Under the pieces are notes generated by a model. The model searched no databases and was not told the DNA's origin. It was given only the letters and a program-made list of their open reading frames with translations. 50,964 bases of DNA from Candidatus Poribacteria bacterium (lineage in GTDB: Bacteria > Poribacteria > WGA-4E > WGA-3G), in assembly GCA_009841255.1 (NCBI GenBank), contig VXMD01000031.1, positions 1 to 50,964 of the forward strand. Reading direction: 5' to 3'. Below, piece after piece: positions 1,434-50,964 of this stretch (position 1 is its first letter; each line of letters starts with the position of its first letter). A program made the translations under genes and the position numbers.

Positions 1434-1494
1434 GTTTTTAGAGGATCGACAAGCGTTATATAGCTAAAAAAAACATAAAAATTCACCTAATAAA

Positions 1495-1583
1495 GTAGCC
1501 TGCAAAAACGGCGCGGGCGACCCGTGAGCAAGGCACCTCAAACATAAAATCCACTTCATTCCTCCGCAAGGAAACTTAAAAAA
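1495..1583 (+). repeat. Leader-type repeat element, copy 1 (hairpin plus CCGCAAGGAAACTTAAAAA tail)
   Basis: Starts GTAGCCTGC, loop AAAAACGGC, closing GCGGGC, and ends CCGCAAGGAAACTTAAAAAA. This copy lies against the coding direction: its tail runs into the last codons and stop of the oxidoreductase gene (stop at 1576-1578), so here it cannot serve as a translation leader. The hairpin stem has a G-T pair where other copies have a Watson-Crick pair. Confidence 0.75.
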
Positions 1584-3606: not shown

Positions 3607-3672
3607 CTTGTAGGGGCAGGTCTTGTGCCTGCCCACAAACGCGCCAACCACAAGGTCAAAATAATCCTAAAA
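3607..3672. repeat. Dispersed hairpin repeat (GGGGCAGGTCTTGTGCCTGCCC type), copy 1
   Basis: GGGCAGG and CCTGCCC form a 7-bp stem around TCTTGTG. The hairpin plus about 40 bp downstream (ACAAACGCGCCAA...CAAGGTCAAA) matches 11972-12037 closely, so the mobile unit is about 65 bp. A shorter related copy is at 16862. Confidence 0.8.
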
Positions 3673-4589: not shown

Positions 4590-6011
4590 TTACCTTTCTG
4601 CACACGGCACAATAATAGAATCCACCATGCCGTGTAGAATTTTCTTGTCCGCTGGACAGACTGCCGCTTGCATACCACCGAGTTTGACAGTGTTACCGAC
4701 AACGAAATAGTATGGACGGAGCAGTGGACGGCATGCCATCTCTTGAACATCACCCGCATCGAAATCGTAATATTGCATCCGTACCCGTTCGGCAGTGTGA
4801 AATTTCTGGAGGACGTGCGGATTCTTCTCAAAATTCTCAAGACTGTTTTCGATAACGGCTTCCCATTCCTCTGTCGGCAGATCGTGTCCGATCGCTACGC
4901 CGCGGCTCCCCCAGGCAAGCTCGGAAAAGCCGGATGGTTTGATAACCAACTCCCGTTGTTTCTGCGTCACGGAACCGAGTTGTCGCCAATCCGTTACGAC
5001 GTTTCCTTCCACCTCCAAATTCGGGATGACAGCATGTGGCGGTAGGGGACGGGCATCGATAATCCATGTCTCTGGAATCACTTGTTGTAGGAACGGGTAA
5101 CTCTTTTTACCGAGATGGCGTTTCCAAAACGGTTGCAGCGTCGGATGATGGAAAAGCGCGAGACATAATTTTTCTTCCAAATAGGATTTGGGTGGGGGTG
5201 TCATCACAACGGTGCGTTTCTTCGCACTATAAAACATTAACTCCGCTTTCGGGATATTCGGCAGATCGAACAGTTCATAGAAGCGATAGAGCACGTCAAC
5301 TTCCATCTTACCTTCTATCGTTTCGACAAGTAGCCCATCTTCCGTAAAAATTACCTCGTGCGGTTTGACCGTCCGGGTCTCCAGGCCCGCCTCACACAAT
5401 GCTGCGGCGAGCCAGACCATCTCCGCCCAATAATCTTCCGATTCGTCCGATACAACGATTGCAAGTGTAGGGTTATCCTTCTTCGCCAAAGCACGAATCA
5501 TTTCGGCATATCCGTTCACCATCCCGTCGCTGCCGCCGATGATGCGATAGCCGAGTTGGGCGTAGAGCTGCCCTAAGCACCCTGTCCCCCCAATAAATCC
5601 GGGAATCGAGTCGAGTTCGGTAATCGCCATGCCATTAGGGGTCGGGAGGATGTCGGGACGCAGCACGCCGGGGAGTTGGCTCTTAAAACGGTTCATCCGT
5701 CCATACTGGATAACGGGTTCAGGTTTGCCGAGTTCCAAGTACTCAGCGACCCAACCGGGCTGAATACCCCGCACGCTTTGGGAATAGAGTAAATTGCAGG
5801 CGCGATAGAAATTTAAAAGATGCGTTCCGAGTTCCTCAAACCATCTCAAATCCGATCCGGGAATCCAGAACGGTTCCGGGGAGATACGCCAAGAGGTGTT
5901 GCAATCAGGATGGACCTCCCGTTTCTCCGATTCAAAGAGTTTCGCCTTCGGGATTTCGTCATTAATAAATAGACATTTCTGTTTAGCATCCAATTTTAAT
6001 TTTTTAATCAT
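4590..6011 (-). CDS. ATP-grasp-like protein of unknown substrate
   Basis: A 473-residue soluble protein with no signal peptide. Features suggesting a (possibly circularly permuted) ATP-grasp fold are RPDILPTPNGMAITELD in the N-terminal third, LVIKPSGFSELAWGSRG near residue 375 with a lysine and glycine-rich loop, and a C-terminal RPYYFVVGNTVKLGG segment. If so it would ligate a carboxylate to an amine or thiol using ATP. I cannot assign a specific family and place this call at moderate confidence. The ATG lies inside a dispersed leader element: CCGCAAGG stands just before it, and its first codons (ATGATTAAAAAATTA) are element sequence. It is followed after 8 bp by the PhyH oxygenase gene, suggesting a two-gene modification pathway. 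Confidence 0.6.
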   Translation of the reverse strand: MIKKLKLDAKQKCLFINDEIPKAKLFESEKREVHPDCNTSWRISPEPFWIPGSDLRWFEELGTHLLNFYRACNLLYSQSVRGIQPGWVAEYLELGKPEPVIQYGRMNRFKSQLPGVLRPDILPTPNGMAITELDSIPGFIGGTGCLGQLYAQLGYRIIGGSDGMVNGYAEMIRALAKKDNPTLAIVVSDESEDYWAEMVWLAAALCEAGLETRTVKPHEVIFTEDGLLVETIEGKMEVDVLYRFYELFDLPNIPKAELMFYSAKKRTVVMTPPPKSYLEEKLCLALFHHPTLQPFWKRHLGKKSYPFLQQVIPETWIIDARPLPPHAVIPNLEVEGNVVTDWRQLGSVTQKQRELVIKPSGFSELAWGSRGVAIGHDLPTEEWEAVIENSLENFEKNPHVLQKFHTAERVRMQYYDFDAGDVQEMACRPLLRPYYFVVGNTVKLGGMQAAVCPADKKILHGMVDSIIVPCAER

Positions 6012-11596: not shown

Positions 11597-11917
11597 ATGC
11601 AAGATAAATTACCCGATTTCCTTCAGAACGTCATCGAAGAATACCCCGATGTTTGGAAAGCGTATCAGGCACTCGGTGAAGCGTGTGGTACCGCTGGCCC
11701 GCTTGATCAGAAAACCGTCCGGCTTGTTAAACTCGCGCTCGCGATCGGCGCGAAGTCTGAAGGCGCTGTACACTCACACGTCCGACGCGCACTCCGAGAA
11801 GGCATTACGCCCGAGGAGTTACAACAGGTAGCCCTGCTCGCCGTGACTTCTATCGGCTGGTCTTCGAGCATGGCGGCATTGTCTTGGATTCAAGATGTCG
11901 TGGACAAACAATCATGA
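11597..11917 (+). CDS. Carboxymuconolactone decarboxylase (CMD/AhpD-like) family protein
   Basis: A 106-residue all-helical protein of the CMD family (LDQKTVRLVKLALAIGAKSE, then AVHSHVRRALREGITPEELQQVALLAV). AhpD-type peroxidase members have a CxxC pair next to the conserved histidine; here the equivalent segment is GAVHSHVRRA with no cysteine, so a thiol peroxidase role is unlikely and a decarboxylase-like or uncharacterised role is more plausible. The start has only a weak ribosome binding site. It stands alone, 160 bp after tatA. Confidence 0.85.
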   Translation: MQDKLPDFLQNVIEEYPDVWKAYQALGEACGTAGPLDQKTVRLVKLALAIGAKSEGAVHSHVRRALREGITPEELQQVALLAVTSIGWSSSMAALSWIQDVVDKQS

Positions 11918-11971: not shown

Positions 11972-12037
11972 CTTGTAGGGGCAGGTCTTGTGCCTGCCCA
12001 CAAACGCGCCAATCACAATGTCAAAGTAATCATAAAA
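11972..12037. repeat. Dispersed hairpin repeat (GGGGCAGG type), copy 2
   Basis: Nearly identical to 3607-3672 over about 65 bp, including the 7-bp hairpin and the downstream ACAAACGCGCCAATCACAA. It lies just before the TPR gene start at 12046; an apparent longer reading frame from 11959 is made of this repeat and is rejected as coding. Confidence 0.8.
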
Positions 12038-12045
12038 CTTCAAGT

Positions 12046-13311
12046 ATGAAACCTGCGTTAGTGCTCCGCAAGATAAAATTAAACACCTATCGGATTCTAA
12101 TCCTCACGGCTATCCTCCTATGGACCACCTCCACTGTCAGCAGAACCGAAACGACAGCCACGTTTCAGCAGGGCGTTGAATACGTCAAACTTCGGCTCTA
12201 TCCACAAGCGGCGGATACCTTTAAATCGATCCTGTCCCGCAATCCGACAGATGTAAACGCCCTTTTCCAACTGGCGAACGTCTATAGATTACAAGACGAA
12301 TTAGAATTAGGAATCGAGACGTTCAACAAAATTTTGGCAATTACAGTGCCAGAAGACTCACCAATAAGTCGCAAACTCTACGGATTAACCCATCTCGCCC
12401 TGTCAGAAATCTATTGCAAACAGAGTCAATTGGACCTCGCAGAACAGCACGCCAAAGAAGCCGTTCAGAGGTATCCGACGGACGCAAATACACATTATCG
12501 GCTCGGTTATATCTACACACACCAAGCCAAATTTGACGCCGCACTCGCCGCCTTCAAACACACCCTCGCACACAACCCCGATTTCGCCGAAGTTTACGAA
12601 TGGCTCGGTTTAATCGCGCTCATGCAACAGAACCCGCAGCAAGCCGTGGGGCATTATCAAAAGGCAATCGCCAGAAAACCTTATGTTCAGAGTGCCTACT
12701 ATAACCTCGCCAAGGCTTACCGACTCCTTGGGGATACAGCCGCCGCAACGGAACAACTTAAGCTGTTCCAGCAGATGAAAACCTATTACGATCGGACCTA
12801 CGCCATTGAAGGCGCTTTGACAGAAGATCCAATGAACACAACGCTTCGGCTTGAATTGGCGGAAGTCCACCTCGCACACAAACACATCTCCGCCGCGATG
12901 ACAACCTATCAAAGCCTGATTCGGCTGCATCCAGAGGTGGTGACCGGATACGATAAGATGGGGCGGCTCTATATGGATCTGAATATGCCACAGCGCGCCG
13001 TTCCGTTCTTTCTGAAAGTCCTTGAACTCAATCCAGACACCGTGGAAGCGCACGTCCGATTGGGTTGGCTTTACACCACATTGAAGGCGTTTGACAAGGC
13101 GGAATCGCATCTACAAGCCGCTATAGAGAAGATGCCTGGACTCACCTTGGCATACCACGGGTTAGCCGAAATTTACACAAAACAGGGGCGTTTGCAGCGG
13201 GCGATAGACGTCTACCGACACATCACAGAAATCGCACCCGACGATAACGACGCTTGGCAAGCATTACAGAACTTAGAGCATTTAAAGAAGAACCCACAAA
13301 CGACGCGGTAA
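12046..13311 (+). CDS. Tetratricopeptide repeat protein, membrane-anchored or exported
   Basis: A 421-residue protein with an N-terminal hydrophobic segment (YRILILTAILLWTTSTVS) acting as signal peptide or anchor, then about ten TPR motifs filling the rest (for example ALFQLANVYRLQDELELGIE, AEVYEWLGLIALMQQNPQQA, LAYHGLAEIYTKQGRLQRAI). TPRs form a superhelix that binds partner proteins. The start at 12046 is chosen because everything upstream in frame is repeat sequence; a strong ribosome binding site is not evident. It ends 10 bp before the FG-GAP/UnbV gene, so the two are probably one transcript and may work together at the cell surface. Confidence 0.85.
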   Translation: MKPALVLRKIKLNTYRILILTAILLWTTSTVSRTETTATFQQGVEYVKLRLYPQAADTFKSILSRNPTDVNALFQLANVYRLQDELELGIETFNKILAITVPEDSPISRKLYGLTHLALSEIYCKQSQLDLAEQHAKEAVQRYPTDANTHYRLGYIYTHQAKFDAALAAFKHTLAHNPDFAEVYEWLGLIALMQQNPQQAVGHYQKAIARKPYVQSAYYNLAKAYRLLGDTAAATEQLKLFQQMKTYYDRTYAIEGALTEDPMNTTLRLELAEVHLAHKHISAAMTTYQSLIRLHPEVVTGYDKMGRLYMDLNMPQRAVPFFLKVLELNPDTVEAHVRLGWLYTTLKAFDKAESHLQAAIEKMPGLTLAYHGLAEIYTKQGRLQRAIDVYRHITEIAPDDNDAWQALQNLEHLKKNPQTTR

Positions 13312-15832: not shown

Positions 15833-15892
15833 AATTCGTCTGAGTGCGCGCTTCTGCGGAAACGTGGTCCAGAGTTATGATTGATGTGATTA

Positions 15893-15966
15893 TCATAGTC
15901 CATCATGGTAAATCATGGTAAATCATAGTCTATCATGGTAAATCATAGTCTATCATGGTAAATCCT
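15893..15966. repeat. Tandem 20-bp repeat (TCATAGTCTATCATGGTAAA)
   Basis: About three and a half copies, one lacking its first half, between the two tandem LamG genes. A single GTTATGGTAAATCCT occurrence at 8282 resembles one end of the unit. The function is unknown; slippage during replication is the likely origin. Confidence 0.85.
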
Positions 15967-16025
15967 GGTCAAAATCCGATTTTCAGCGCGCACTCGCTAT
16001 CTACAGCCAAACAATAGGAGGATGT

Positions 16026-16861: not shown

Positions 16862-16891
16862 GTGTAGGGGTAGGTCTTGTGCCTGCCCACG
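16862..16891. repeat. Dispersed hairpin repeat (GGGGCAGG type), short copy 3
   Basis: GTGTAGGGGTAGGTCTTGTG followed by CCTGCCCACG: same family as 3607 and 11972 but with a G-T mismatch in the stem and without the 40-bp downstream part. Confidence 0.7.
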
Positions 16892-19040: not shown

Positions 19041-19139
19041 TTTATGAGGTCTCTACCCCGCTCTTCATTCCATTACGAGCGGGTTTCTGGCTCAATCGTA
19101 AGCAAAATAAGGGTATATACGGCATCGCATCAGAAATCA

Positions 19140-19245
19140 AGCCTGCAACATCGGCGCAGGCGACTCGAACACGGAAACTGTAACGTTACATTGACTATCA
19201 CTTATCCGCAAGGAAACTTAAAAATCCGCAAGGAAACTTAAAAAA
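19140..19245 (+). repeat. Leader-type repeat element, copy 3 (directly before the Ldh2-type gene)
   Basis: AGCCTGC-AACATCGGC-GCAGGC hairpin, then GACTCGAACACGGAAAC, then ATCCGCAAGGAAACTTAAAA present twice in tandem and ending exactly at the ATG of 19246. The GACTCGAACACGGAAAC segment is shared with the copy inside the cyclase gene at 45225. Confidence 0.85.
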
Positions 19246-20223
19246 ATGAATGTCGTACCGAAAAAATTTATCCGCGTGATGCCGGATGCAATGCGCGCAT
19301 TCGTCAGTGAAGCGTTCCAAAAGGCAGGGACCTCGGAGGCAGACGCCGCACACATAGCGCATCTGTTGGTTCTCACCGATCTACGGGGTGTGTTCAGCCA
19401 CGGCACATGGCAAACCCCCGGATATGTCGGCATGATGCTTGACGGGAAAGTAAACCCACGTCCAAATGTCCGCTGCATCGACGAATCCCCGACAACAGCG
19501 GTCTACGACGGTGATGGCGGTATGGGACATTTTGCCGCATACCATGCCGCAACAGTAGCCGTCAAAAAAGCCAAAGAGATGGGACTCGGTGCCGCAACGA
19601 GTCGGAACCACTTCCATTTTGGGAGTGCAGGCAAGTATACACGGCTCGCACTTGAAGCGGACTGTGCCGGGTTCGCGGTTTCCTGCCACCGTTTCCGACA
19701 CAGTACCGAGGCTCCAATCGCCACCGCAACAGGTGCCTCACCGATGAGTTTCGCGATCCCAGCAGGCAACCAGCCGCCTATTGTCGTCGATATGGCAACC
19801 GGCATTGATGCCAAGTTGCCGTTAGAAGAAGCGTTTGAACAGAGTCCCGCCGCGTTCTTCAAGATGTTGGGCTTGAGTCACGTGAGCCATGCGCTCGGTG
19901 GGTTTATGGCAGGCATCTGGCTATTCGATAAACCCCCGGATCCCCCAGAAATCTGGGAAGGCGCCAATCAGGGTGCTTTCATTGCTGCGATTGACATCTC
20001 CCGATTCCGACCGATTGACGCGTATAAGACAGAAATCGATCAACATATCCACGATGCCCGACAGATGCAACCGGCACCGGGGTATGATCGATCCGATCTG
20101 CCCGGCGGCTTAGAGTGGGAGCGCGAACGGGAATGGGCGGAAATCGGCATCCCGGTTGGCGAGGCACATCAGGAACAGTTGAAAACAGTCGCTGAACGCG
20201 TTGGCATCCCGTTTCCATTCTAA
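19246..20223 (+). CDS. Ldh2/malate-lactate dehydrogenase family oxidoreductase
   Basis: A 325-residue NAD(P)-dependent dehydrogenase of the Ldh2/YlbC/YiaK family, unrelated in fold to classical lactate dehydrogenase. Family signatures are TDLRGVFSHGTWQTPGYVG, VYDGDGGMGHFAAYHA and ATSRNHFHFGSAGKYTRLAL, the last two lining the cofactor and substrate site. Members oxidise malate, sulfolactate, ureidoglycolate or keto-sugars; the sequence does not choose. Length is slightly short for the family. The ATG directly follows a tandem-duplicated CCGCAAGGAAACTTAAAA tail, whose AAGGAA acts as ribosome binding site. Confidence 0.88.
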   Translation: MNVVPKKFIRVMPDAMRAFVSEAFQKAGTSEADAAHIAHLLVLTDLRGVFSHGTWQTPGYVGMMLDGKVNPRPNVRCIDESPTTAVYDGDGGMGHFAAYHAATVAVKKAKEMGLGAATSRNHFHFGSAGKYTRLALEADCAGFAVSCHRFRHSTEAPIATATGASPMSFAIPAGNQPPIVVDMATGIDAKLPLEEAFEQSPAAFFKMLGLSHVSHALGGFMAGIWLFDKPPDPPEIWEGANQGAFIAAIDISRFRPIDAYKTEIDQHIHDARQMQPAPGYDRSDLPGGLEWEREREWAEIGIPVGEAHQEQLKTVAERVGIPFPF

Positions 20224-23047: not shown

Positions 23048-23091
23048 TTATTCGTAAAGTGCTAAAGCGAATTTAAGGGAAATTCAGAACC

Positions 23092-23186
23092 GTAGCCCGT
23101 AATGTAATGGAGGGCGGATATAAGGAAGAGACGTCAAAGTTGAAAATGAACGTCATTCCTCCGCAAGGTAAGATTAAAAAATTAAC
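23092..23186 (+). repeat. Leader-type repeat element, copy 4 (overlapping the moaC 5' end)
   Basis: GTAGCCC-GTAATGTAATGGA-GGGCGGATA hairpin, then CATTCCTCCGCAAGGTAAGATTAAAAAATTA. The hairpin loop type matches copy 2 (5999-6088). The tail runs into the first conserved codons of moaC. Confidence 0.8.
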
Positions 23187-36802: not shown

Positions 36803-37034
36803 TTTCATAGTAACCCCCAAAAATTACGCCGTTTCCAAAAGTGCTATAAACCCACACCATGACTGACTTTTCAAAGGGTATTCTGAGAACTTGAAAATTA
36901 AGTTTCATAGTAACTGCGAAAAAACACCGAGTTTCAAAAGTGGCTGAGATCTCACGCAGTGCCTTGCTTCCGGGCAGTTTTCGTCGTAAGGTTTTCCAAA
37001 CCTTACTATGAAATACTATGAAATACTATGAAAT
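36803..37034. repeat. Repeats upstream of the Crp-like regulator gene
   Basis: Two imperfect copies of a TTTCATAGTAAC unit of about 43 bp, 100 bp apart (36803 and 36903), a hairpin AAGGTTT-TCC-AAACCTT (36988-37004), then three exact copies of ACTATGAAAT (37005-37034) followed by TTCAT, giving the palindrome ATGAAATTTCAT. No protein gene lies in 36685-37195. The ACTATGAAAT copies are the reverse complement of the TTTCATAGT core, so they could be one binding-site family. Confidence 0.7.
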
Positions 37035-37114
37035 TTCATAAAAATCCGCGATTCAAACAATAACCACCAACTCCGATAATTGACCGCCATAATCCTGCCC
37101 CAACCATATTTTTC

Positions 37115-37143
37115 TTGCTTTATTGGCAACCTTTTGATATAAT
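37115..37143 (+). promoter_or_regulatory. Candidate sigma-70 promoter of the Crp-like gene
   Basis: TTGCTT (37115-37120), a 17-bp spacer and TATAAT (37138-37143), about 50 bp before the ATG at 37196. The perfect -10 box argues against any coding start further upstream. Confidence 0.6.
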
Positions 37144-37195
37144 TAAGCAGAAAGAAATCATCGCCATTAAACACAGAAACAGCAAAAACCGTAGC

Positions 37196-38080
37196 ATGGT
37201 AACACAACAAAAAATCCCAGAGAGATTCTGGTGCGTTAAAGGGATAGACATCTTCCGAGACCTTTCCGAAACAGATGCCGACGCGCTTGCACGAATAACG
37301 ACTTTCGCTGAATTAAAATACGGAGACACGCTCTCTGACGAAGGCGTTTATCTGTTGAAAGAAGGTCGCATCAAGATTTATCAAACACCGCCGGAAGGAG
37401 AGGCTATCACCTTAGACGTGTTAGAACCCGGCGAATTCTTTGGGGCGGTGAAATGGGAAGATAACGACGCACATCCGAACGTCACCACTGAGACACTCAC
37501 AGAGGTTGTGGTTGGAATCGTTACCGTCCAAAACTTCCAATATTTTTTGAAACGAAAACCCCACTTAGCGTTGCCACCACAGAGAACGATAGGAAGTCTT
37601 ATAAAGCGGTATCTACCCTGGCGTGCGGCGGCACCAGCGAATTACAATCTCGTAACCTCACGTCAGAAACAGCGTCGGAGACTGACGAACCCTTTTCTAA
37701 ACATCGCGTTCCGAAGTCCCGCATCGCGACTCGCGCTTCTGCTACAAAACTACGCCGACGCACTGGAACACAGAGGCACAGCGATGGGACGGAGCTCGCA
37801 GTGTGTCTTACGTAAACTCTCGACAAAGCGGTTGGCACAATTAATCGGCTGCTCCGTTGAGAAGATGGTAGCACTCCTGAACCAGTTCAAACAGCATCAG
37901 ATCATAGAGAAACGGTTTCGGCGGATTCAGATACTTGACCCGTGGCAACTCAAAAAGATTACCAACGCAAGAATGGAAACACTACCACCTCTTCAAACGC
38001 AGTCGGATTCCAACTTTCTACCAGACACGCAGCCTGCAACATCGGCGCAGGCGGATTTAAGGAACGCCGTTGATAGTTGA
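37196..38080 (+). CDS. Crp/Fnr-family transcriptional regulator
   Basis: A 294-residue regulator. The N-terminal cyclic-nucleotide-binding-type barrel is shown by LKYGDTLSDEGVYLLKEGRI then VLEPGEFFG, without the arginine and serine pair typical of true cAMP binding. The C-terminal winged helix is at about residues 200-255, with CVLRKLSTKRLAQLIGCSVE and MVALLNQFKQHQIIE. The ligand is unknown. The last 16 residues (from about 279) and the stop codon come from a dispersed repeat element, so the native tail has been replaced. The ACTATGAAAT repeats and a strong promoter lie directly upstream and may allow autoregulation. Confidence 0.83.
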   Translation: MVTQQKIPERFWCVKGIDIFRDLSETDADALARITTFAELKYGDTLSDEGVYLLKEGRIKIYQTPPEGEAITLDVLEPGEFFGAVKWEDNDAHPNVTTETLTEVVVGIVTVQNFQYFLKRKPHLALPPQRTIGSLIKRYLPWRAAAPANYNLVTSRQKQRRRLTNPFLNIAFRSPASRLALLLQNYADALEHRGTAMGRSSQCVLRKLSTKRLAQLIGCSVEKMVALLNQFKQHQIIEKRFRRIQILDPWQLKKITNARMETLPPLQTQSDSNFLPDTQPATSAQADLRNAVDS

Positions 38081-38110
38081 AACAGACGTTATTCCTCCGC
38101 AAGGTAAAAT
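38030..38110 (+). repeat. Leader-type repeat element, copy 5 (ends the Crp-like gene)
   Basis: AGCCTGC-AACATCGGC-GCAGGC hairpin, GGATTTAAGGAACG, then ATTCCTCCGCAAGGTAAAAT. The element's first half is translated as the C-terminus of the Crp-like protein; the TGA stop is inside it. A heptad-periodic stretch follows (38114-38138). Confidence 0.8.
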
Positions 38111-38160
38111 AGCAATTAGCAGTCGGTTGTCGGTTAAGAGGACTTCGTTATATCAAGTCC

Positions 38161-38258
38161 GTAGCCTGCAACATCGGCGCAGGCGAGTCTACGTAAAGGC
38201 ACATTATTTATCAAATTCACCTGACCGAACCGCAAGGTATAATTAAAAAATTAAAAAT
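38161..38258 (+). repeat. Leader-type repeat element, copy 6 (directly before the M28 peptidase gene)
   Basis: GTAGCCTGC-AACATCGGC-GCAGGC hairpin, then CTGACCGAACCGCAAGGTATAATTAAAAAATTA and the ATG at 38260. Two copies lie within 130 bp of each other here. Confidence 0.85.
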
Positions 38259-38259
38259 T

Positions 38260-39639
38260 ATGAGCAAGAAGAACCCCTATTTGCAACTCGACCAACAGAT
38301 GGTCGGTGACATCTATACTTCGCAAGAAGTAATGGAAAATTTGACAGTCCTATGCGATGAATACGGTGCTCGGTTCGCCGGGACACCTGAGGAATATGAA
38401 GCCGCGAACTTTATCGCCGCCTGTTTCAAACGTTACGGACTCCAAAACGTCAATCTTGAGACATATCCTTACGCTGGCTGGACGCGTGGCACAGCGACGC
38501 TTGAGGTTATCGAACCGATTCGTCGAACTCTGCACTGCATCTCGTTGCCCTACTGCCCCGCCGCCGACGTCACCACCGAACTTGTCTCTGTTGGATGTGG
38601 AAGTCCTGACGAATACACCGCACTCGGTGATACAGCAACCGATAAACTGGTTATGGCGCAGAGCGCCTCACCCCCCGATCTCGGGAGATGGGTACACCGC
38701 AAGGAGAAGTTTGAACGTGCTGTACTTGCGGGTGCAAGCGGATTCATTTTTGTCAGCGAACACCCGGGGGTCGGACCCGAAACGGGGAGCCTTCAAAACG
38801 ACAGACGCGCCCCTATCCCCGGCATATCCGTTTGCAGAGAAGATGGCGAATTCCTGGCACGGTTGATCGCACGAGAAAACGGCAAGGTAACACTCAAACT
38901 CCAAACGACGGATATCAATGAACCGCGGACCTCGTGGAACGTCGTCGCAGATTTGCCCGGTAATGAAAATCCCGAAGAGATGGTGGTCGTCGGGTGCCAT
39001 TACGACGGACACGATATCTCACAAGGCGCGCACGACCCCGCTTCAGGAATGGTATCCGTCATAGAAGCCTCGCGTGTCCTATCCACTTATGCCGCCGATT
39101 CGCTCAAGTGTACCGTCCGTTTCATCGCTTTCGGAACGGAAGAAATCGGACTGACCGGAGCGTTCCGTTATGTCGATGCACACGCCTCGGAGTTGGATAA
39201 CATTCGGTTCATGCTCAATATGGATGCCGCAGGCGGTGCAAGTCGTAAGGGCATTGTCCTCCACTGCTGGAACGCATTGGGCCCCTTCTTTAACACCGCA
39301 CGTGAGCAGATGCACACCGAAATGCCGGTTGGACAGAAAGTGCATTCCTATTCTGACCATTTTCCGTTTTTCCTTAAAGGGGTGCCTTCAAGTCACATGG
39401 GCGACCCAGACGCGCCGCCTGCCGGTAGAGGTTTCGGTCATACGGCTTACGACACACTGGACAAAGTGGAATTGGAGAATCTACGGGCTGCCAGTTCAGT
39501 CGGTGCAAGAGTCGCACTCCGCTGCGCGAATGCCGACCATTTTCCTGCCAAACGCCGAACATCGGAAGCGGTTCAAGAGATTGTTGATACGGACCCAGGG
39601 TTAGAAGGATACCGCATCTCTCTCAAATTGACAAGCTAA
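38260..39639 (+). CDS. M28-family zinc aminopeptidase-like protein
   Basis: A 459-residue metallopeptidase with two-zinc M28 motifs: VVVGCHYDGHD (zinc histidine), AHDPASGM (bridging aspartate), GTEEIGLTGA (catalytic and zinc glutamates), MLNMDAAGG (zinc aspartate) and GFGHTAYDTLDK (zinc histidine). A PA-like inserted domain (about residues 130-220) lies before the catalytic core. No signal peptide is evident, so it is probably cytoplasmic. It would trim N-terminal residues from peptides. The 3-bp gap to the htrA-like gene suggests an operon for protein turnover. Confidence 0.9.
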   Translation: MSKKNPYLQLDQQMVGDIYTSQEVMENLTVLCDEYGARFAGTPEEYEAANFIAACFKRYGLQNVNLETYPYAGWTRGTATLEVIEPIRRTLHCISLPYCPAADVTTELVSVGCGSPDEYTALGDTATDKLVMAQSASPPDLGRWVHRKEKFERAVLAGASGFIFVSEHPGVGPETGSLQNDRRAPIPGISVCREDGEFLARLIARENGKVTLKLQTTDINEPRTSWNVVADLPGNENPEEMVVVGCHYDGHDISQGAHDPASGMVSVIEASRVLSTYAADSLKCTVRFIAFGTEEIGLTGAFRYVDAHASELDNIRFMLNMDAAGGASRKGIVLHCWNALGPFFNTAREQMHTEMPVGQKVHSYSDHFPFFLKGVPSSHMGDPDAPPAGRGFGHTAYDTLDKVELENLRAASSVGARVALRCANADHFPAKRRTSEAVQEIVDTDPGLEGYRISLKLTS

Positions 39640-39642
39640 GTT

Positions 39643-41073
39643 ATGGGCACTACACATTATCCAATTAAACTCTTAATCCTTATTTCAATACTTGTCGGCG
39701 CACTTTGGACCCCTGCCTATAGCGCAGGGGCTAATAGAGAAGCGAGGTCGGGAAATCCCACCAGCGACGCAGTCACAGCATCGCGGCGCACAGCAATTGT
39801 CGTAGCAGTAGCGAATGCAAGTCCCGCAGTCGTCAATATCAGTGCTGTCCGGAGCGTTGAGACACGCACATCCTTTGATGAATGGTTCTGGGGCGAGATT
39901 ACGCTTCCGCGTAGGCGGCGTGCCTTACGAGAGGTCGGTTCCGGGGTTATCGTTGATAGAAATGGACATATCCTGACAAATTATCACGTCATCAGAGATG
40001 CCGATAAAATTACCGTCACTGTCCCTGATGGACGGGAATTTGAGGCACAGATCGTCGGATATGATCTTTTCTCAGATCTCGCCCTTTTGGAGGTCGAAAC
40101 AGACGGGGTATCCCTCCCAGAAATTCAGTGGGGAAACTCAGATTCGCTTCTGATAGGTGAATGGGTCGTCGCAATCGGAAATCCGTTCGGTTTGTCGTTA
40201 GGCGACGCGCAACCTACAGTCACAGCGGGTATCGTGAGCGCGACAAAACGCACGCTTACCGTCGAAGACCTGTATCATGAGGATCTGATTCAAACAGACG
40301 CCTCCATTAATCCAGGCAACAGTGGCGGTGCGTTGGTAAACACACACGGTGAACTTATCGGTATCAACACCGTCATCCGTTCAACCAGCGGTGGGTCACA
40401 AGGCGTCGGTTTTGCGATTCCCGTCAATAAGGCGAAGCGGGTCGTCCAACAGATTACCGAGTATGGCAGCGTTATTTCCCCCTACTTTGACGTGGAGGTA
40501 CAGCCCGTAACTGAAGAGTTGGCAGAAAAGTTGTCAATGCCGCACAACATCGGGGTTTTGGTGTCGGAAGTAGGGAAACGCAGCCCTATTGCTGATGCAG
40601 GCATTAAACGAGGAGATGTCATTGTTGCGATTTCAGAGCAACGCATCAAAGACGAACAGGACTTTAACGCACGCACGCGTCTGCTGCCACTCAATCAACC
40701 CGTCCAATGCGAGTTCATCCGCCGTGGGAAAAGACGGCAGACCGAATTCACATTGAAAACGCTACAGTGGAATTATACACCCCCCGGATGGGGGATAACG
40801 GTTGCTCAACCCGATAAGGCGATGGCACAGAAATATAAGCAGCGTGGTGTTATTGTCATGCGCATCGAAAAAGACAGTGGATTGGCAAGCGCGCTGGAAC
40901 GTGGGGATTTTATCTACCAAATCGACGATACCCCCATCCATTCGCTTGAGATCTTCAAAATTGTTGATGACCATATCCGCACCCAAAATAGGACGCAAGT
41001 TTATTTTGAGCGAGACGGCATCTATCAAGCCGTTCCCGTCACTTTTTTTAATAGAAACAATCGGCGGAGATAA
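39643..41073 (+). CDS. HtrA/DegP-like periplasmic serine protease with two PDZ domains
   Basis: A 476-residue exported protease. The signal peptide is IKLLILISILVGALWTPAYS. The trypsin-like domain has the triad His115 (TNYHVI), Asp145 (SDLALLEV) and Ser227 (INPGNSGGALVN), all intact. Two PDZ domains follow, the first with GVLVSEVGKRSPIADAGIKR and GDVIVAIS, the second near RGVIVMRIEKDSGLASALER. This is the DegP/DegQ arrangement for degrading or refolding misfolded envelope proteins. It is encoded 3 bp after the M28 peptidase gene, so both are probably one transcript. Confidence 0.94.
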   Translation: MGTTHYPIKLLILISILVGALWTPAYSAGANREARSGNPTSDAVTASRRTAIVVAVANASPAVVNISAVRSVETRTSFDEWFWGEITLPRRRRALREVGSGVIVDRNGHILTNYHVIRDADKITVTVPDGREFEAQIVGYDLFSDLALLEVETDGVSLPEIQWGNSDSLLIGEWVVAIGNPFGLSLGDAQPTVTAGIVSATKRTLTVEDLYHEDLIQTDASINPGNSGGALVNTHGELIGINTVIRSTSGGSQGVGFAIPVNKAKRVVQQITEYGSVISPYFDVEVQPVTEELAEKLSMPHNIGVLVSEVGKRSPIADAGIKRGDVIVAISEQRIKDEQDFNARTRLLPLNQPVQCEFIRRGKRRQTEFTLKTLQWNYTPPGWGITVAQPDKAMAQKYKQRGVIVMRIEKDSGLASALERGDFIYQIDDTPIHSLEIFKIVDDHIRTQNRTQVYFERDGIYQAVPVTFFNRNNRRR

Positions 41074-41082
41074 GTGTTTTAT

Positions 41083-41120
41083 AGTCGTCAGTTAACAGTT
41101 TTCAGTTTTCGGTTACAAGA
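41083..41120. repeat. Heptad-periodic degenerate repeat
   Basis: AGTCGTCAGTTAACAGTTTT then CAGTTTTCGGTTACAAG, reading in 7-nt steps (GTCGTCA, GTTAACA, GTTTTCA, GTTTTCG, GTTACAA). Confidence 0.6.
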
Positions 41121-41148
41121 GACTTCAGTTAACCAAAACCCAAATCGC

Positions 41149-41236
41149 GTAGCCTGCAACAACGGCGCAGGCGGATAACGCAAAGAAACGAGAATATCTT
41201 AACCCATCTGACCGAACCGCAAGGAACATTAAAAAC
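41149..41236 (+). repeat. Leader-type repeat element, copy 7 (directly before the TPR gene)
   Basis: GTAGCCTGC-AACAACGGC-GCAGGCGGAT hairpin, then CATCTGACCGAACCGCAAGG and AACATTAAAAAC ending at the ATG of 41237. Confidence 0.85.
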
Positions 41237-42085: not shown

Positions 42086-45000
42086 ATGCATCACAAACGC
42101 TGCCCCAATTGTGGATTCTTGAACCCACCGTTCAAATTTTGCGGTGAATGTGGAACGTCCCTTGAAAGCTTCGCACGTCCACGCCAAATTCCAGCAGCCG
42201 ATACCGCTGTCATGGAACAAGAAGTACCGCATCGGGCAGAACACCGCCAGTTAACCGTCCTTTTCTGTGATATTGTTGACTCCACCGCCTTTTCTGAAAA
42301 ATTGGATCCCGAAGAACTTCGAAATCTTTTGGAGGTATACCGGACGTGTATCATGGAGGTGGTTTTAGCACAAAACGGACATATCGCGCGGTACTTTGGT
42401 GATGGTATCCTCGTCTACTTCGGCTACCCAATCGCACACGAAGACGCCGCACACCGCGCCGTCCGAGCCGCGTTGGGCATCGTCGCCGCCCTTGAGACAC
42501 TTAACCCCTATTTGCAGACCTCCTTTGGCGTGGAAATCAGCGTGCGACTGAGTATTGACACAGGACTTGTTGTCGTCTGGCACATATCCGCAGAAGAGTC
42601 TCCTGAAGCGATTGACATCGTCGGTAAAACACCGAATATCGCTGCGAGAATGCAAGCGTTAGCAACACCAAACAGCATTGTCATTGGGGATACAACCCAT
42701 CAATTGGTTGAAGGATTTTTTGAAACCGCTGCCCTCGGCACTTTCCCGATCCGCGGTATCTCACAACCTGTGAATGTGTACCAGGTATCAGGTGAAATTC
42801 CGGCACAGAGTCGCTTGGATATTGCTAGTGAAAGTGGATTGACACCCTTAATCGGACGGGAGCGCGAGGTTGAATCGCTCAAGCAAGGGTGGGCACACGT
42901 ACTCGCAGCCAAAGGGCAAGCCCTGCTGATTGAAGGGGAAGCCGGCATCGGAAAGTCAAGATGTTTGCAACTCATTCAAGAGCACGTCGAGCATGCTCCT
43001 GAAGCGGTGACCATGGAATGCAGGTGCTCGCCATATTATCAGAATAGTCCACTCTATCCTATTCTCTCGCTGTTCCAAGAGCACGTTGTGCAATTTGCTA
43101 GCTCCGATACCCCACAGACGCGCCTTGACAAACTTGAGAATTTACTGCGCGACTACAGCATCCCAACCGTCGGAGGTGATACAGCGTCCGTTTCAGATTC
43201 TGATCGTGACGCACAAGAGCATACGCCAGAGACACTACCTCTCCTTGCCGAATTATTGGAGATACCTTTTGAGATACAACAACAAACAGTAACCGGTGTA
43301 GGTCCGCGTCCCTACAATAGACCCGTTGAACAGGACACATATCCATCAGGCTGGGGACGCAGACAGCGTCGGCAGCAAACTCTGAAAGTCCTCGTCCAAG
43401 TCCTGTTAAAGATGGCTGAACAAAAGCCGATACTTTTGGTCGTTGAAGATCTCCACTGGATTGACCCTTCCAGTATCGAATTTCTTACACTCTTAATTAG
43501 ACGGATCGAAAATGCTCGGATCTTCGTGGTTTTGTCTTGCCGTTCTGGTACACAACACTTTCGACGCAGTTTACAGTCTGAAGAGGAGGGTCAACCCCAA
43601 GAAGATGAAATTTCCGATAGCGATCTTGAGAGTTCTGTCCTTGATAGAGAAATGCTGGAGCAACTTCTGCATCCAGAGTGGGCAAGTGAACTCATATTAG
43701 CCGCACTCACACCTCCGCAGGTTGAGGAGATGATCCAGCACGTTGCAGGAGACACAGCACTGCCATCAGCAGTATTGACACGGATTGTCGAAATGACCGA
43801 GGGAGTCCCGCTATTTGTTGAGGAACTCACCCAGATGATGCTCGAGAATGTATCGGGGTTACAAACCCCTCCCACATCTGAGGTCTCCGATCAAACAGAT
43901 CCACGCTCTCAGACAATGGAAGTGCCTGTAACGCTACAGGATTTACTGACTGCGAGATTAGACGAACTCGGTACTGCCAAAGAGATCGTTCAACTCGGTG
44001 CAACGCTTGGAAGGGAATGGACGGCTGAGTTATTACACAAAATCGCTTCTGGGCTCGATCTGGAAAACCATCTTTTCACGGATTTCGCATCGTTGCGGGG
44101 TGAATTGAACAAACTCGTAAACACCTACATCCTTAATCGCAACCAAGTCGCTGACAATCAACTCCGCTATACATTCCGACATCCACTCCTGCGCGAAACG
44201 GCGTATCAATCTCTGCTCAGGAGTAGACGTCAGCGGTATCATCAACGCATTGCAGAAGTATTGCAAGGCGAGAACGGTTTCCAACCCGAGTTGGTCGCTT
44301 ATCATTTCACAGAAGCAAACCTCCCTGAAAAAGCGATCGGCTATTGGCACCGTGCCGGACAACGCGCACTTGAGCGTTCCGCAAACGTGGAAGGTATTCG
44401 CCACATCACGCAGGGGCTTGCGGCTCTTGAGAAACTGTCGACGAACGTCAACACAATAGGGATGGAGGCTATTGCGCAACGAGAATTGGAGTTGCAAACG
44501 ATTCTGGGGAGCGCGCTCATCGCGACAAAAGGGTATGCTGCGCGGGAAGTCGAGGTCGCTTATACGCGAGCGCGGGAACTCTTAGAAACACTTGAAAGTA
44601 AGGAACCGACCATAGATGGAGATACGGATGCCTCGTTGGACAACATAAAAGATCGCCGCTTTCCGATTCTCTTTGGATTATGGCTCTCTCATCTTGTACG
44701 GGGACGCTTCCTCTCCGCACGTGAACTCGGCGAACAGTGTTTTGTAATTGCCAAGCAAGTCAGCGACCCAGCTTTTGAGGTAGAGGCACATCGCGCCCTC
44801 GGCTCAACGCTTTACTATTTAAGTGAATTCAAAAGTGCACTCGCACATCTTGAGGCTGGCATCGAAATCTATCAACCGCAACTTCATCCGGTCCCAACGT
44901 TCCTTCACTTCGTAGCCGATCCTGGGATGACATTGCTCGCCTATTCTGCCCCGCTTTTATGGTGTCTTGGCTATCCGCTGCAAGCCGAAGCACGACTTGC

Positions 45001-45826
45001 CGAATCCGCAAGAATTGGAAAGGACAGAAGTCATCCTTTCAGTGATGCCGTGCTGCTCTATTTTACAACCGTTCTTAACCAACATCAAGATGAAGTTGAA
45101 AAGGTGGAGACCGCTGCAACCGAGATGCTACAGATATGTCAAGAACACGGATTTTCCCTATGGGAAGCCGCCGCAACAGTGATGAAGGGCTGGGCACTTA
45201 CATCATCCAGTTTTAACGAAACCCAAGCCCGTAATGAAATGGAGGGCGACTCGAACACGGAAACCCCCAAAGAACAAGCCACTGATACTTATCCGCAAGG
45301 AACAATTAAAAAATCAGAAGAAGGGATTTCGATGATACGTAAAGGCATTGCCGCATGGGAAAAGACAAGGGCTGAATTGCAACTGCCCCTCTTTCTCGCA
45401 CTGCTCGCACAAGCATATCAACGCGCAGGACAGTATACATTGGCCCTGCAAACACTTGATTCTGCTTTGAGTGTCGTCACACGAACAGGCGAACGCGCCT
45501 ATGATGCAGAACTCACGCGGCGGAAAGGCGAACTCTGTCTCGTCCTCAGTACAGAAACCGAAACGGTTGGCGGAAAGGACACGACTGCTGCGATTGCAAA
45601 GGCTGAATCCTATTTTCAGGAGGCATTAGCGATCGCGCGCCGCCAAGGTGCGAAATCGTGGGAACTCCGAGCCGCTCTCAGTTTAAGCGAACTGTGGTGC
45701 ACGCAAGACCGTCGCAGGGAGGCGTACAATTTGCTGAGACCGATATATCTATGGTTTTCGGAAGGTTTTGATACGAAAGACCTCCGACACGCAAAACACC
45801 TGTTGGAAAAACTAAGACTACCTTAA
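42086..45826 (+). CDS. Zinc-ribbon/adenylate cyclase/AAA-type ATPase/TPR multidomain signalling protein
   Basis: A 1246-residue cytoplasmic protein. A zinc ribbon (Cys6, Cys9, Cys19, Cys22) opens it. A class III cyclase domain (about 50-235) has LTVLFCDIVDST with the metal-binding aspartates and ARYFGDGILVYFGYP. A signalling ATPase follows: Walker A GEAGIGKS at 284-291 and Walker B ILLVVEDLHWIDPSS. The remaining half is TPR-like. This layout is common in cyclase-ATPase regulators of many phyla; ligand and target are unknown. About 30 residues near 1047-1076 are encoded by an in-frame copy of the dispersed leader element, lying between TPR helices. GGGGTT-ACA-AACCCC (43855-43869) is another in-gene hairpin. 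Confidence 0.9.
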   Translation: MHHKRCPNCGFLNPPFKFCGECGTSLESFARPRQIPAADTAVMEQEVPHRAEHRQLTVLFCDIVDSTAFSEKLDPEELRNLLEVYRTCIMEVVLAQNGHIARYFGDGILVYFGYPIAHEDAAHRAVRAALGIVAALETLNPYLQTSFGVEISVRLSIDTGLVVVWHISAEESPEAIDIVGKTPNIAARMQALATPNSIVIGDTTHQLVEGFFETAALGTFPIRGISQPVNVYQVSGEIPAQSRLDIASESGLTPLIGREREVESLKQGWAHVLAAKGQALLIEGEAGIGKSRCLQLIQEHVEHAPEAVTMECRCSPYYQNSPLYPILSLFQEHVVQFASSDTPQTRLDKLENLLRDYSIPTVGGDTASVSDSDRDAQEHTPETLPLLAELLEIPFEIQQQTVTGVGPRPYNRPVEQDTYPSGWGRRQRRQQTLKVLVQVLLKMAEQKPILLVVEDLHWIDPSSIEFLTLLIRRIENARIFVVLSCRSGTQHFRRSLQSEEEGQPQEDEISDSDLESSVLDREMLEQLLHPEWASELILAALTPPQVEEMIQHVAGDTALPSAVLTRIVEMTEGVPLFVEELTQMMLENVSGLQTPPTSEVSDQTDPRSQTMEVPVTLQDLLTARLDELGTAKEIVQLGATLGREWTAELLHKIASGLDLENHLFTDFASLRGELNKLVNTYILNRNQVADNQLRYTFRHPLLRETAYQSLLRSRRQRYHQRIAEVLQGENGFQPELVAYHFTEANLPEKAIGYWHRAGQRALERSANVEGIRHITQGLAALEKLSTNVNTIGMEAIAQRELELQTILGSALIATKGYAAREVEVAYTRARELLETLESKEPTIDGDTDASLDNIKDRRFPILFGLWLSHLVRGRFLSARELGEQCFVIAKQVSDPAFEVEAHRALGSTLYYLSEFKSALAHLEAGIEIYQPQLHPVPTFLHFVADPGMTLLAYSAPLLWCLGYPLQAEARLAESARIGKDRSHPFSDAVLLYFTTVLNQHQDEVEKVETAATEMLQICQEHGFSLWEAAATVMKGWALTSSSFNETQARNEMEGDSNTETPKEQATDTYPQGTIKKSEEGISMIRKGIAAWEKTRAELQLPLFLALLAQAYQRAGQYTLALQTLDSALSVVTRTGERAYDAELTRRKGELCLVLSTETETVGGKDTTAAIAKAESYFQEALAIARRQGAKSWELRAALSLSELWCTQDRRREAYNLLRPIYLWFSEGFDTKDLRHAKHLLEKLRLP
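45225..45314 (+). repeat. Leader-type repeat element, copy 8 (in frame inside the cyclase gene)
   Basis: AGCCCGTAATGAAATGGAGG then GCGACTCGAACACGGAAAC, ending ACTTATCCGCAAGGAACAAT followed by TAAAAAA. It combines the hairpin loop of copies 2 and 4 with the GACTCGAACACGGAAAC body of copy 3. It adds about 30 codons without a stop. Confidence 0.85.
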
Positions 45827-45858: not shown

Positions 45859-46003
45859 GTAGCCTGCAACAATACGCAGAAATACCCCGGGGAATGCCAC
45901 ACGGCATTCATACCGTTGATTCGCAAAAACACGCAGGCGGATATACGGAAAGTAACCTTCGTTACCCAATTACCCTAACCGAACCGCAAGGAAACTTTAA
46001 AAT
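45859..46003 (+). repeat. Leader-type repeat element, copy 9, interrupted in the hairpin loop
   Basis: GTAGCCTGCAACAA is separated from ACGCAGGCGGATA by about 55-60 extra bases that contain their own hairpin, GAATGCC-ACAC-GGCATTC (45892-45909). The element then ends CCGAACCGCAAGGAAACTTT just before the ATG of 46004. Confidence 0.8.
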
Positions 46004-50877: not shown

Positions 50878-50898
50878 CAGAATTGTTAACCAGTGCCG

Positions 50899-50926
50899 GT
50901 AGCACGCAACAACGGCGCGTGCGGAC
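50899..50926 (+). repeat. Leader-type repeat element, copy 10 (partial at the window edge)
   Basis: GTAGCACGC-AACAACGGC-GCGTGCGGA: the same loop as other copies with a different but fully compensated stem (GCACGC/GCGTGC instead of GCCTGC/GCAGGC). The tail would lie beyond the window end. Confidence 0.75.
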
Positions 50927-50964
50927 CTAAAGAAAAAACCGTTATCATTTCAACGGCTTACCTT

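What the first reader, a model, noticed from the sequence alone, without database searches (positions are those of the whole stretch)
38161..41236. A dispersed hairpin-plus-Shine-Dalgarno element that acts as a portable translation leader
Ten copies (1495, 5999 minus strand, 19140, 23092, 38030, 38161, 41149, 45225, 45859, 50899) share a 5' hairpin opening GTAG or AG, a conserved loop (AACAWCGGC or GTAATGTAATGGA) and closing GCGGAT or GCGA, a variable 40-60 bp body, and the tail (GAA)CCGCAAGGAAnnTTAAAAA. Five copies (minus strand at 6011; plus strand at 19246, 38260, 41237, 46004) end exactly at a start codon, so AAGGA becomes the ribosome binding site, and a sixth overlaps the moaC start. An RNA hairpin about 60-80 nt before the start suggests a regulatory leader that spreads between genes. 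I know of no described family with this layout.
Basis: partly seen in the sequence, partly recalled or inferred. Interest (0 to 1): 0.82.

Follow-up and report, generated by a model that had tools for sequence, protein, structure and literature searches.

The report
Mobile repeat that abuts start codons
Some sponge-symbiont bacteria (Poribacteria) carry hundreds of copies of a roughly 110-letter mobile DNA repeat whose tail looks like a ribosome-binding site, and about a third of the copies end at exactly the letter before a gene's start codon, as if the repeat replaces the gene's own translation start signal.

Summary
The genome is a Candidatus Poribacteria MAG. Its 5.73 Mb hold 308 exact tails (reversed control 0); a covariance model finds 143 copies in an 851-kb sample, about 950 genome-wide by extrapolation. 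It is abundant in nearly all 38 congeners and nearly absent outside the genus. The 4-bp stem is compensatory. It moves: 27 of 48 testable sites lack it in a related species, and some insertions are clean or nested. Copies cluster directly 5' of co-directional genes (56-71% within 60 nt, versus 12-17% of random intergenic points). Pooled over species, 141 tails have ATG exactly 20 nt after CCGCAAGG starts (17 at 19, 19 at 21), so the 20-nt tail abuts ATG. AAGG then lies at -16, inside the host's native SD range. So "portable translation leader" is partly right: a mobile repeat bringing a plausible ribosome-binding site. Regulation by the hairpin has no support. Two window copies are read in frame as protein. 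The mobiliser is unknown. It resembles mycobacterial MIRUs and GTAG-REPs but meets neither definition. Function is inferred only.

The parts
1494..1582 (+). element copy at the 3' end (stop codon) of the minus-strand ORF 1576-2727, antisense to it; insertion begins at about 1468-1471
   Evidence: CM hit 72 bits; exact empty site in L093
6002..6089 (-). element copy; the ATG of ORF 4590-6011 lies inside its tail; orthologous copy present in G083
   Evidence: sequence
12025..12084 (+). degenerate copy, mainly the tail (CCGCAAGATAAAATTAAACA)
   Evidence: CM hit E 6.5e-7
19137..19245 (+). element copy with a duplicated 20-nt tail; the second tail abuts ATG 19246
23091..23179 (+). element copy that replaced the native moaC start; read in frame from ATG 23107 into moaC
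38028..38115 (+). older element copy, overlapping the 3' end of ORF 37115-38080; its tail was split by the next insertion
   Evidence: stands alone next to the start codon in L052, L053 and L092
38160..38248 (+). younger element copy nested in the tail of the previous one, 30 nt (tail start) before ATG 38260
   Evidence: CM hit 89 bits; empty site in L053, L052, L092
38116..38159 (+). left flank of the nested copy, resembling one arm of another palindromic repeat family (GTCGGTTGTCGGTTAAGAGG)
   Evidence: inserted together with 38160-38248
41148..41235 (+). element copy abutting ATG 41237 (tail start + 20)
   Evidence: other species have other element types, tail relics or no element here
45223..45311 (+). 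element copy inside ORF 42086-45826, in frame (net +33 codons)
   Evidence: continuous coding sequence in relatives; translation
45859..46002 (+). element copy with an insert in its hairpin loop, abutting ATG 46004 (tail start + 20)
50898..50964 (+). element head and body, cut by the window end
   Evidence: CM hit cut at 3' end

Best explanation
A new family of non-autonomous, small mobile DNA repeat (about 110 bp), largely confined to one genus of Candidatus Poribacteria. From 5' to 3' it has a weakly conserved left flank of about 20-27 nt, GTAG plus a hairpin with one of two conserved loops, a body of nearly fixed length (about 45 nt), and a 20-nt tail, CCGCAAGG[A/T]AnnnTTAAAAA. In about a third of copies the tail ends at the letter before a start codon. 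There it stands in place of the old 5' untranslated region and its AAGG takes the place of the lost Shine-Dalgarno sequence. Carrying its own ribosome-binding site would let the repeat settle at gene starts without silencing genes, the logic proposed for mycobacterial MIRUs. Shown here: anatomy, stem covariation, presence/absence between species, nested and clean insertions, sense-strand start-codon abutment in several species, SD-zone position, in-frame copies inside genes. Inferred: that ribosomes use the tail, that this makes insertion near-neutral, and that an enzyme encoded elsewhere acts on the GTAG hairpin.
For: 308 exact tails, 0 controls; genus-restricted with copy numbers from 0 to 308 exact tails; 143 model hits in 851 kb; stem fully paired in 168 of 181 unselected copies against a shuffled mean of 85; 27 of 48 sites empty in a relative, with clean, nested and in-CDS insertions; ATG exactly at +20 in 39 of 105 tails here, 10 of 35 in G083, 57 of 172 elsewhere, and 56-71% within 60 nt 5' of co-directional genes against 12-17% of random intergenic points; 141 at +20 against 17 at +19 and 19 at +21; native SD range -18 to -8, element AAGG at -16, 98% against 53% of genes with an SD 4-mer; tail-only relics kept at ATG +20 in ORF 41237 orthologues.
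Against: No expression or ribosome data. AAGG at -16 is off the native optimum of -12. Most copies are not at a start codon. The mobiliser is unidentified: Y1 transposase loci carry no confident copies and their number does not track copy number. No constant target-site duplication. The extreme sharpness at 20 nt is not explained by selection for SD spacing alone.
Confidence: 0.68

Rival explanations
1. Spread by recombination rather than transposition: leader cassettes are copied from gene to gene by template switching or gene conversion at the shared AAAAATG(AAA) stretch, which would fix the 20-nt distance by descent.
For: The distance is exact and independent of the TTAAA register; bases after ATG are A-rich (60-67% A at the next three positions against 37-38% in native genes); whole 5' untranslated regions are replaced, not merely interrupted; left flanks differ between species for the same copy.
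Against: Clean insertions at places with no ATG (1494, 45223); most copies lie away from an ATG.
Confidence: 0.2
2. A regulatory RNA leader (riboswitch-like or protein-bound): the hairpin and body sense a signal and control translation of a regulon.
For: Compensatory hairpin with conserved loops, fixed-length body, sense orientation at start codons.
Against: No second conserved helix; copies inside coding sequence and antisense at gene ends; presence at a gene changes between species; truncated tails persist without the hairpin. Target genes were not tested for a common function.
Confidence: 0.07
3. A REP-type element of the GTAG superfamily, mobilised by a RAYT/Y1 transposase, which happens to carry an extended 3' part.
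For: GTAG directly 5' of a palindrome in about 70% of copies, hundreds of copies, alternative complementary stems, GT pairs, as described for GTAG repeats (PMC3733652).
Against: No confident element copy at the Y1 loci tested; Y1 number does not correlate with copy number, rho -0.09, p 0.6; one high-copy genome has no Y1 match and G080 with five has almost no copies; unit of about 110 nt and no inverted dimers.
Confidence: 0.2

Closest known systems
MIRU, mycobacterial interspersed repetitive units (PMC12548453, citing earlier work)
   Same: Small repeat, apparently mobile, inserted at start codons in a way thought to spare expression of the gene.
   Different: MIRUs carry a short ORF coupled to the gene with a -4 overlap; here an SD-like motif precedes ATG. 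A base A after ATG (ATGA) is enriched, but equally in body types whose frame cannot couple.
REP / GTAG-tagged palindromic repeats (PMC3733652)
   Same: GTAG next to a short hairpin with alternative complementary stems; hundreds of copies.
   Different: REPs are 20-40 bp, often dimers, linked to RAYT genes; this unit is about 110 nt with a conserved body and tail, oriented toward genes.
Rickettsia palindromic elements, RPE (PMC10969869)
   Same: Small repeats found in frame inside ORFs; two window copies behave so.
   Different: RPEs are about 150 bp and encode a conserved peptide; here in-gene copies are a minority and the two body lengths use different frames.
TAACTGA direct repeats of Beggiatoaceae (PMC4679880)
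   Same: Repeats within a few nucleotides upstream of start codons, suggested to act in translation.
   Different: Heptamer arrays, without hairpin or SD-like tail.
Pneumococcal BOX, RUP and SPRITE repeats (PMC3049150)
   Same: Small interspersed, probably mobile repeats, some with ORF potential.
   Different: Over-represented between convergent genes, the opposite of this family.

Membership tests
GTAG-REP | Palindrome of 20-40 bp tagged by GTAG at one end | tested here: inconclusive
   GTAG plus hairpin present in most copies, but it is one part of a larger conserved unit
GTAG-REP | Association with RAYT/Y1 transposase genes | tested here: not met
   No confident copy at six Y1 loci; no correlation over 38 genomes
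MIRU | Insertion at start codons | tested here: met
   141 copies with ATG exactly at +20
MIRU | Internal ORF coupled to the gene by overlapping stop/start | tested here: not met
   One frame open in 52 of 77 copies with 45-nt body, but ATGA equally frequent in both body classes (43/70 and 41/71)
RPE | In-frame insertion within ORFs as the usual location | tested here: not met
   About a tenth of copies are inside genes, 29 sense and 3 antisense; most are 5' of genes
MITE | Terminal inverted repeats and target-site duplication | tested here: not met
   No inverted ends; insertions show A-runs or small target losses, no constant duplication
MITE | Non-autonomous mobile repeat in many copies | tested here: met
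   No coding capacity of its own; presence/absence between species
Rfam cis-regulatory RNA | Match to a known family | tested here: not met
   No match at gathering score; one chance-level match at E 0.47 not overlapping any copy
Ribosome-binding site | SD-like motif in the position used by native genes | tested here: met
   AAGG at -16, native range about -18 to -8, peak -12
Ribosome-binding site | Ribosomes initiate at the abutted ATG by means of AAGG | not testable with these tools
   Needs ribosome profiling or reporter assays

The most novel reading that the evidence does not exclude
The element is aimed at start codons: its mobility mechanism recognises or copies the translation-initiation region itself and swaps in a self-carried ribosome-binding site at a fixed 20-nt distance, so that a selfish repeat has rewired translation initiation of roughly a tenth of the genes in some symbionts.
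Probability: 0.3. Interest if true: 0.85.

Novelty: new variant of a known kind. Interest (0 to 1): 0.62.

Why it matters
Some well-studied small bacterial repeats, such as those of the pneumococcus, are over-represented between convergent genes, away from gene starts. A family that settles exactly against start codons while bringing an SD-like motif would show how a parasite can make itself harmless, or useful, by supplying a translation signal. In the sampled sequence 52 of 556 ORFs carry the CCGCAAGG tail within 60 nt of their start, so it could influence protein output on a genome scale in an uncultured symbiont phylum. Copy numbers that differ from 0 to 308 exact tails between congeners make its effect on expression testable by comparison.

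Tried and rejected
(1) Second helix in the body: RNAalifold on all copies and on each type, and mutual information by type, gave only the head hairpin. (2) Y1 transposase as mobiliser: no association or correlation. (3) SINE-like retroposition with 5' truncation: tail-only and head-only copies both occur; one RT gene in the genome, no copy at its locus. (4) ATG as part of a target-site duplication: no matching ATG peak at the left end. (5) MIRU-like ATGA coupling: not dependent on body type. (6) A test of tail conservation at starts against elsewhere is discarded, because the loose head pattern admitted many false copies to the 'elsewhere' set. (7) The first covariance model R1 had two wrong pairs and was replaced by R2. 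(8) Alignment A1 was pre-selected for perfect stems, so its 100% pairing is biased; the unselected count is used instead. (9) A sigma-70 promoter inside the element: reading the sequence, TATAAT-like tails have no -35 box at proper spacing (inspection only, no scan run).

Full report
WHERE IT IS. The window is part of a 5.73 Mb, 87-contig genome. A scan of public genomes for the tail pattern returned mostly records named Candidatus Poribacteria (the few listed loci in other taxa hold single matches, taken as chance), and all 38 genomes of the window's own genus belong with them by kinship. Poribacteria are sponge symbionts (established knowledge). The exact tail CCGCAAGGNANNNTTAAAAA occurs 308 times in this genome and the reversed control never. 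Of 38 genomes of the genus 37 have it, with 1 to 308 copies; other genera are near zero. A corrected covariance model (R2) finds matches in all 38 (capped at 51 per genome; one congener has only 1), weak ones in two neighbouring genera, and a few isolated strong ones further out. In the 851-kb sample of this genome the model gives 143 hits, or about 950 genome-wide by extrapolation.

ANATOMY. Unrelated copies share an 89-nt unit from GTAG to TTAAAA (the dispersed matches start and stop there). The head is a hairpin with loop AACAACGGC or GTAAYGAARTGGA. In 181 copies not selected for pairing, 168 have all four stem pairs standard, against a mean of 85 and a maximum of 98 in 1,000 re-deals of the 3' arms; G-U pairs occur; the small inner pair of the second loop type is C-G or T-A in 88 of 89. 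The body is 43-46 nt in nearly all copies and comes in at least three sequence types. Upstream of GTAG a weak consensus, CAAAACC after a T-rich stretch, fades out at about -25. The two clean insertions without nesting start 23-26 nt before the hairpin. So the mobile unit is about 110 nt. Copies away from starts show that the conserved 3' end is position 20 of the tail: A at positions 16-20, mixed bases from 21 on.

IT MOVES. With flanks from this genome placed in related species, 48 sites could be compared; the relative lacks the element at 29, of which two are tandem artefacts. Copy 1494 has an exact empty site in L093. Copy 38160 and its left flank lie inside the tail of copy 38028, which stands alone in three related species. 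Copy 45223 interrupts a coding sequence that is continuous in the relatives compared. Tandem arrays occur, up to seven units of 142 nt in L172. No constant target-site duplication is seen: there are A-runs, or 12-23 target bases are missing.

START CODONS. In 106 exact tails of the 851-kb sample, 38 have the ATG of an ORF of at least 80 codons exactly 20 nt after the start of CCGCAAGG, and 48 within 12-26 nt, against 4.7% of random sites. By gene context, 62 of 105 tails lie within 60 nt 5' of a co-directional gene in this genome, 25 of 35 in G083 and 96 of 172 in other loci, against 17%, 13.5% and 12.5% of random intergenic points. Pooled, 141 copies have ATG at +20, 17 at +19 and 19 at +21; the distance stays 20 whether the TTAAA run starts at position 12 or 13. 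Native SD positions in this genome are spread from about -18 to -8, so selection for spacing alone would not be expected to give such a sharp value. Either insertion is aimed, or leaders are copied together with the ATG. Bases after ATG are unusually A-rich in these genes (natives), which fits joining within AAAAATGAAA.

WHAT THE TAIL MAY DO. Genes without the element carry an SD 4-mer in the last 25 nt in 53% of cases (background 21%), most often starting at -12. The element's AAGG starts at -16, at the long end of that range, and 98% of genes with the tail have an SD 4-mer. At some sites the relative has a native SD that the copy has replaced, for example GAGGAG before ATG in L082 against the element in L017. 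Orthologues of ORF 41237 in L063, L065, L066 and L076 keep only the last 20-40 nt of the element, still with ATG at +20. This is what a retained ribosome-binding site would look like, but no experiment shows use by ribosomes.

COPIES READ AS PROTEIN. Inside predicted genes, copies are sense in 29 cases and antisense in 3. Copy 45223 adds a net 33 codons in frame to a 1,246-aa ORF. Copy 23091 removed the native start of moaC, and the open frame now starts in the hairpin loop and passes through the element. One sense frame is open more often than in shuffles, but shared ancestry makes this inconclusive.

WHAT IT IS NOT. No Rfam family matches. It has the GTAG hairpin of REPs but not their size, dimer arrangement or transposase association (PMC3733652). 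It sits at start codons like MIRUs but without the coupled ORF (PMC12548453). Pneumococcal BOX, RUP and SPRITE repeats prefer sites between convergent genes (PMC3049150), the opposite pattern. Full-text searches found no description of such a repeat in Poribacteria; the library lacks most subscription journals.

VERDICT. The portable-leader idea is half right: a mobile repeat that carries a plausible ribosome-binding site and lands exactly at start codons. Regulation by the hairpin is unsupported, and the mobilising machinery and the cause of the exact 20-nt distance are open.

Noticed in passing
upstream of orthologues of ORFs 41237 and 46004 in L054, L072, L073, L075 and others; window 38116-38145: A second repeat family, palindromic (CAGTTATCGGTTAAGAGG...CCTCTTAACTGATAACTGATAACTATTAAAAA), also ends just before start codons; its right arm holds TAACTGA direct repeats like those described upstream of start codons in Beggiatoaceae (PMC4679880). 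A quick scan of 851 kb with a narrow pattern found 15, four near a start.
   Followed up: partly
window 45859-45930; L003, L007, L010, L014 and others: Element hairpin loops often hold inserts built from short units such as ACGCAGAAATACGCAG and CCCAAGCAAAAAC, as if the hairpin loop itself is a target for smaller repeats.
   Followed up: no
window 3609-3636, 11974-12001, 16863-16890: A 28-nt near-identical palindromic repeat, TGTAGGGGCAGGTCTTGTGCCTGCCCAC, three times.
   Followed up: no
window 15881-15980 and 37004-37043: Tandem 10-nt repeats (AATCATAGTC/AATCATGGTA; TACTATGAAA) between genes.
   Followed up: no
G018:C5:4933, G045, G046:C48 and C57: Isolated, strong element copies in genomes of other genera or families, which could be horizontal transfer or contaminating contigs.
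   Followed up: no
L172:2651-3522: Seven tandem 142-nt units of element plus left flank directly before an ATG (ABC-transporter-like gene), a possible hypervariable leader array.
   Followed up: partly
L005 about 11700-11800 and L036 about 1700-1770: Runs of ten N flanked by identical element copies suggest that assembly gaps fall at tandem copies, so copy numbers in draft genomes may be underestimates.
   Followed up: no
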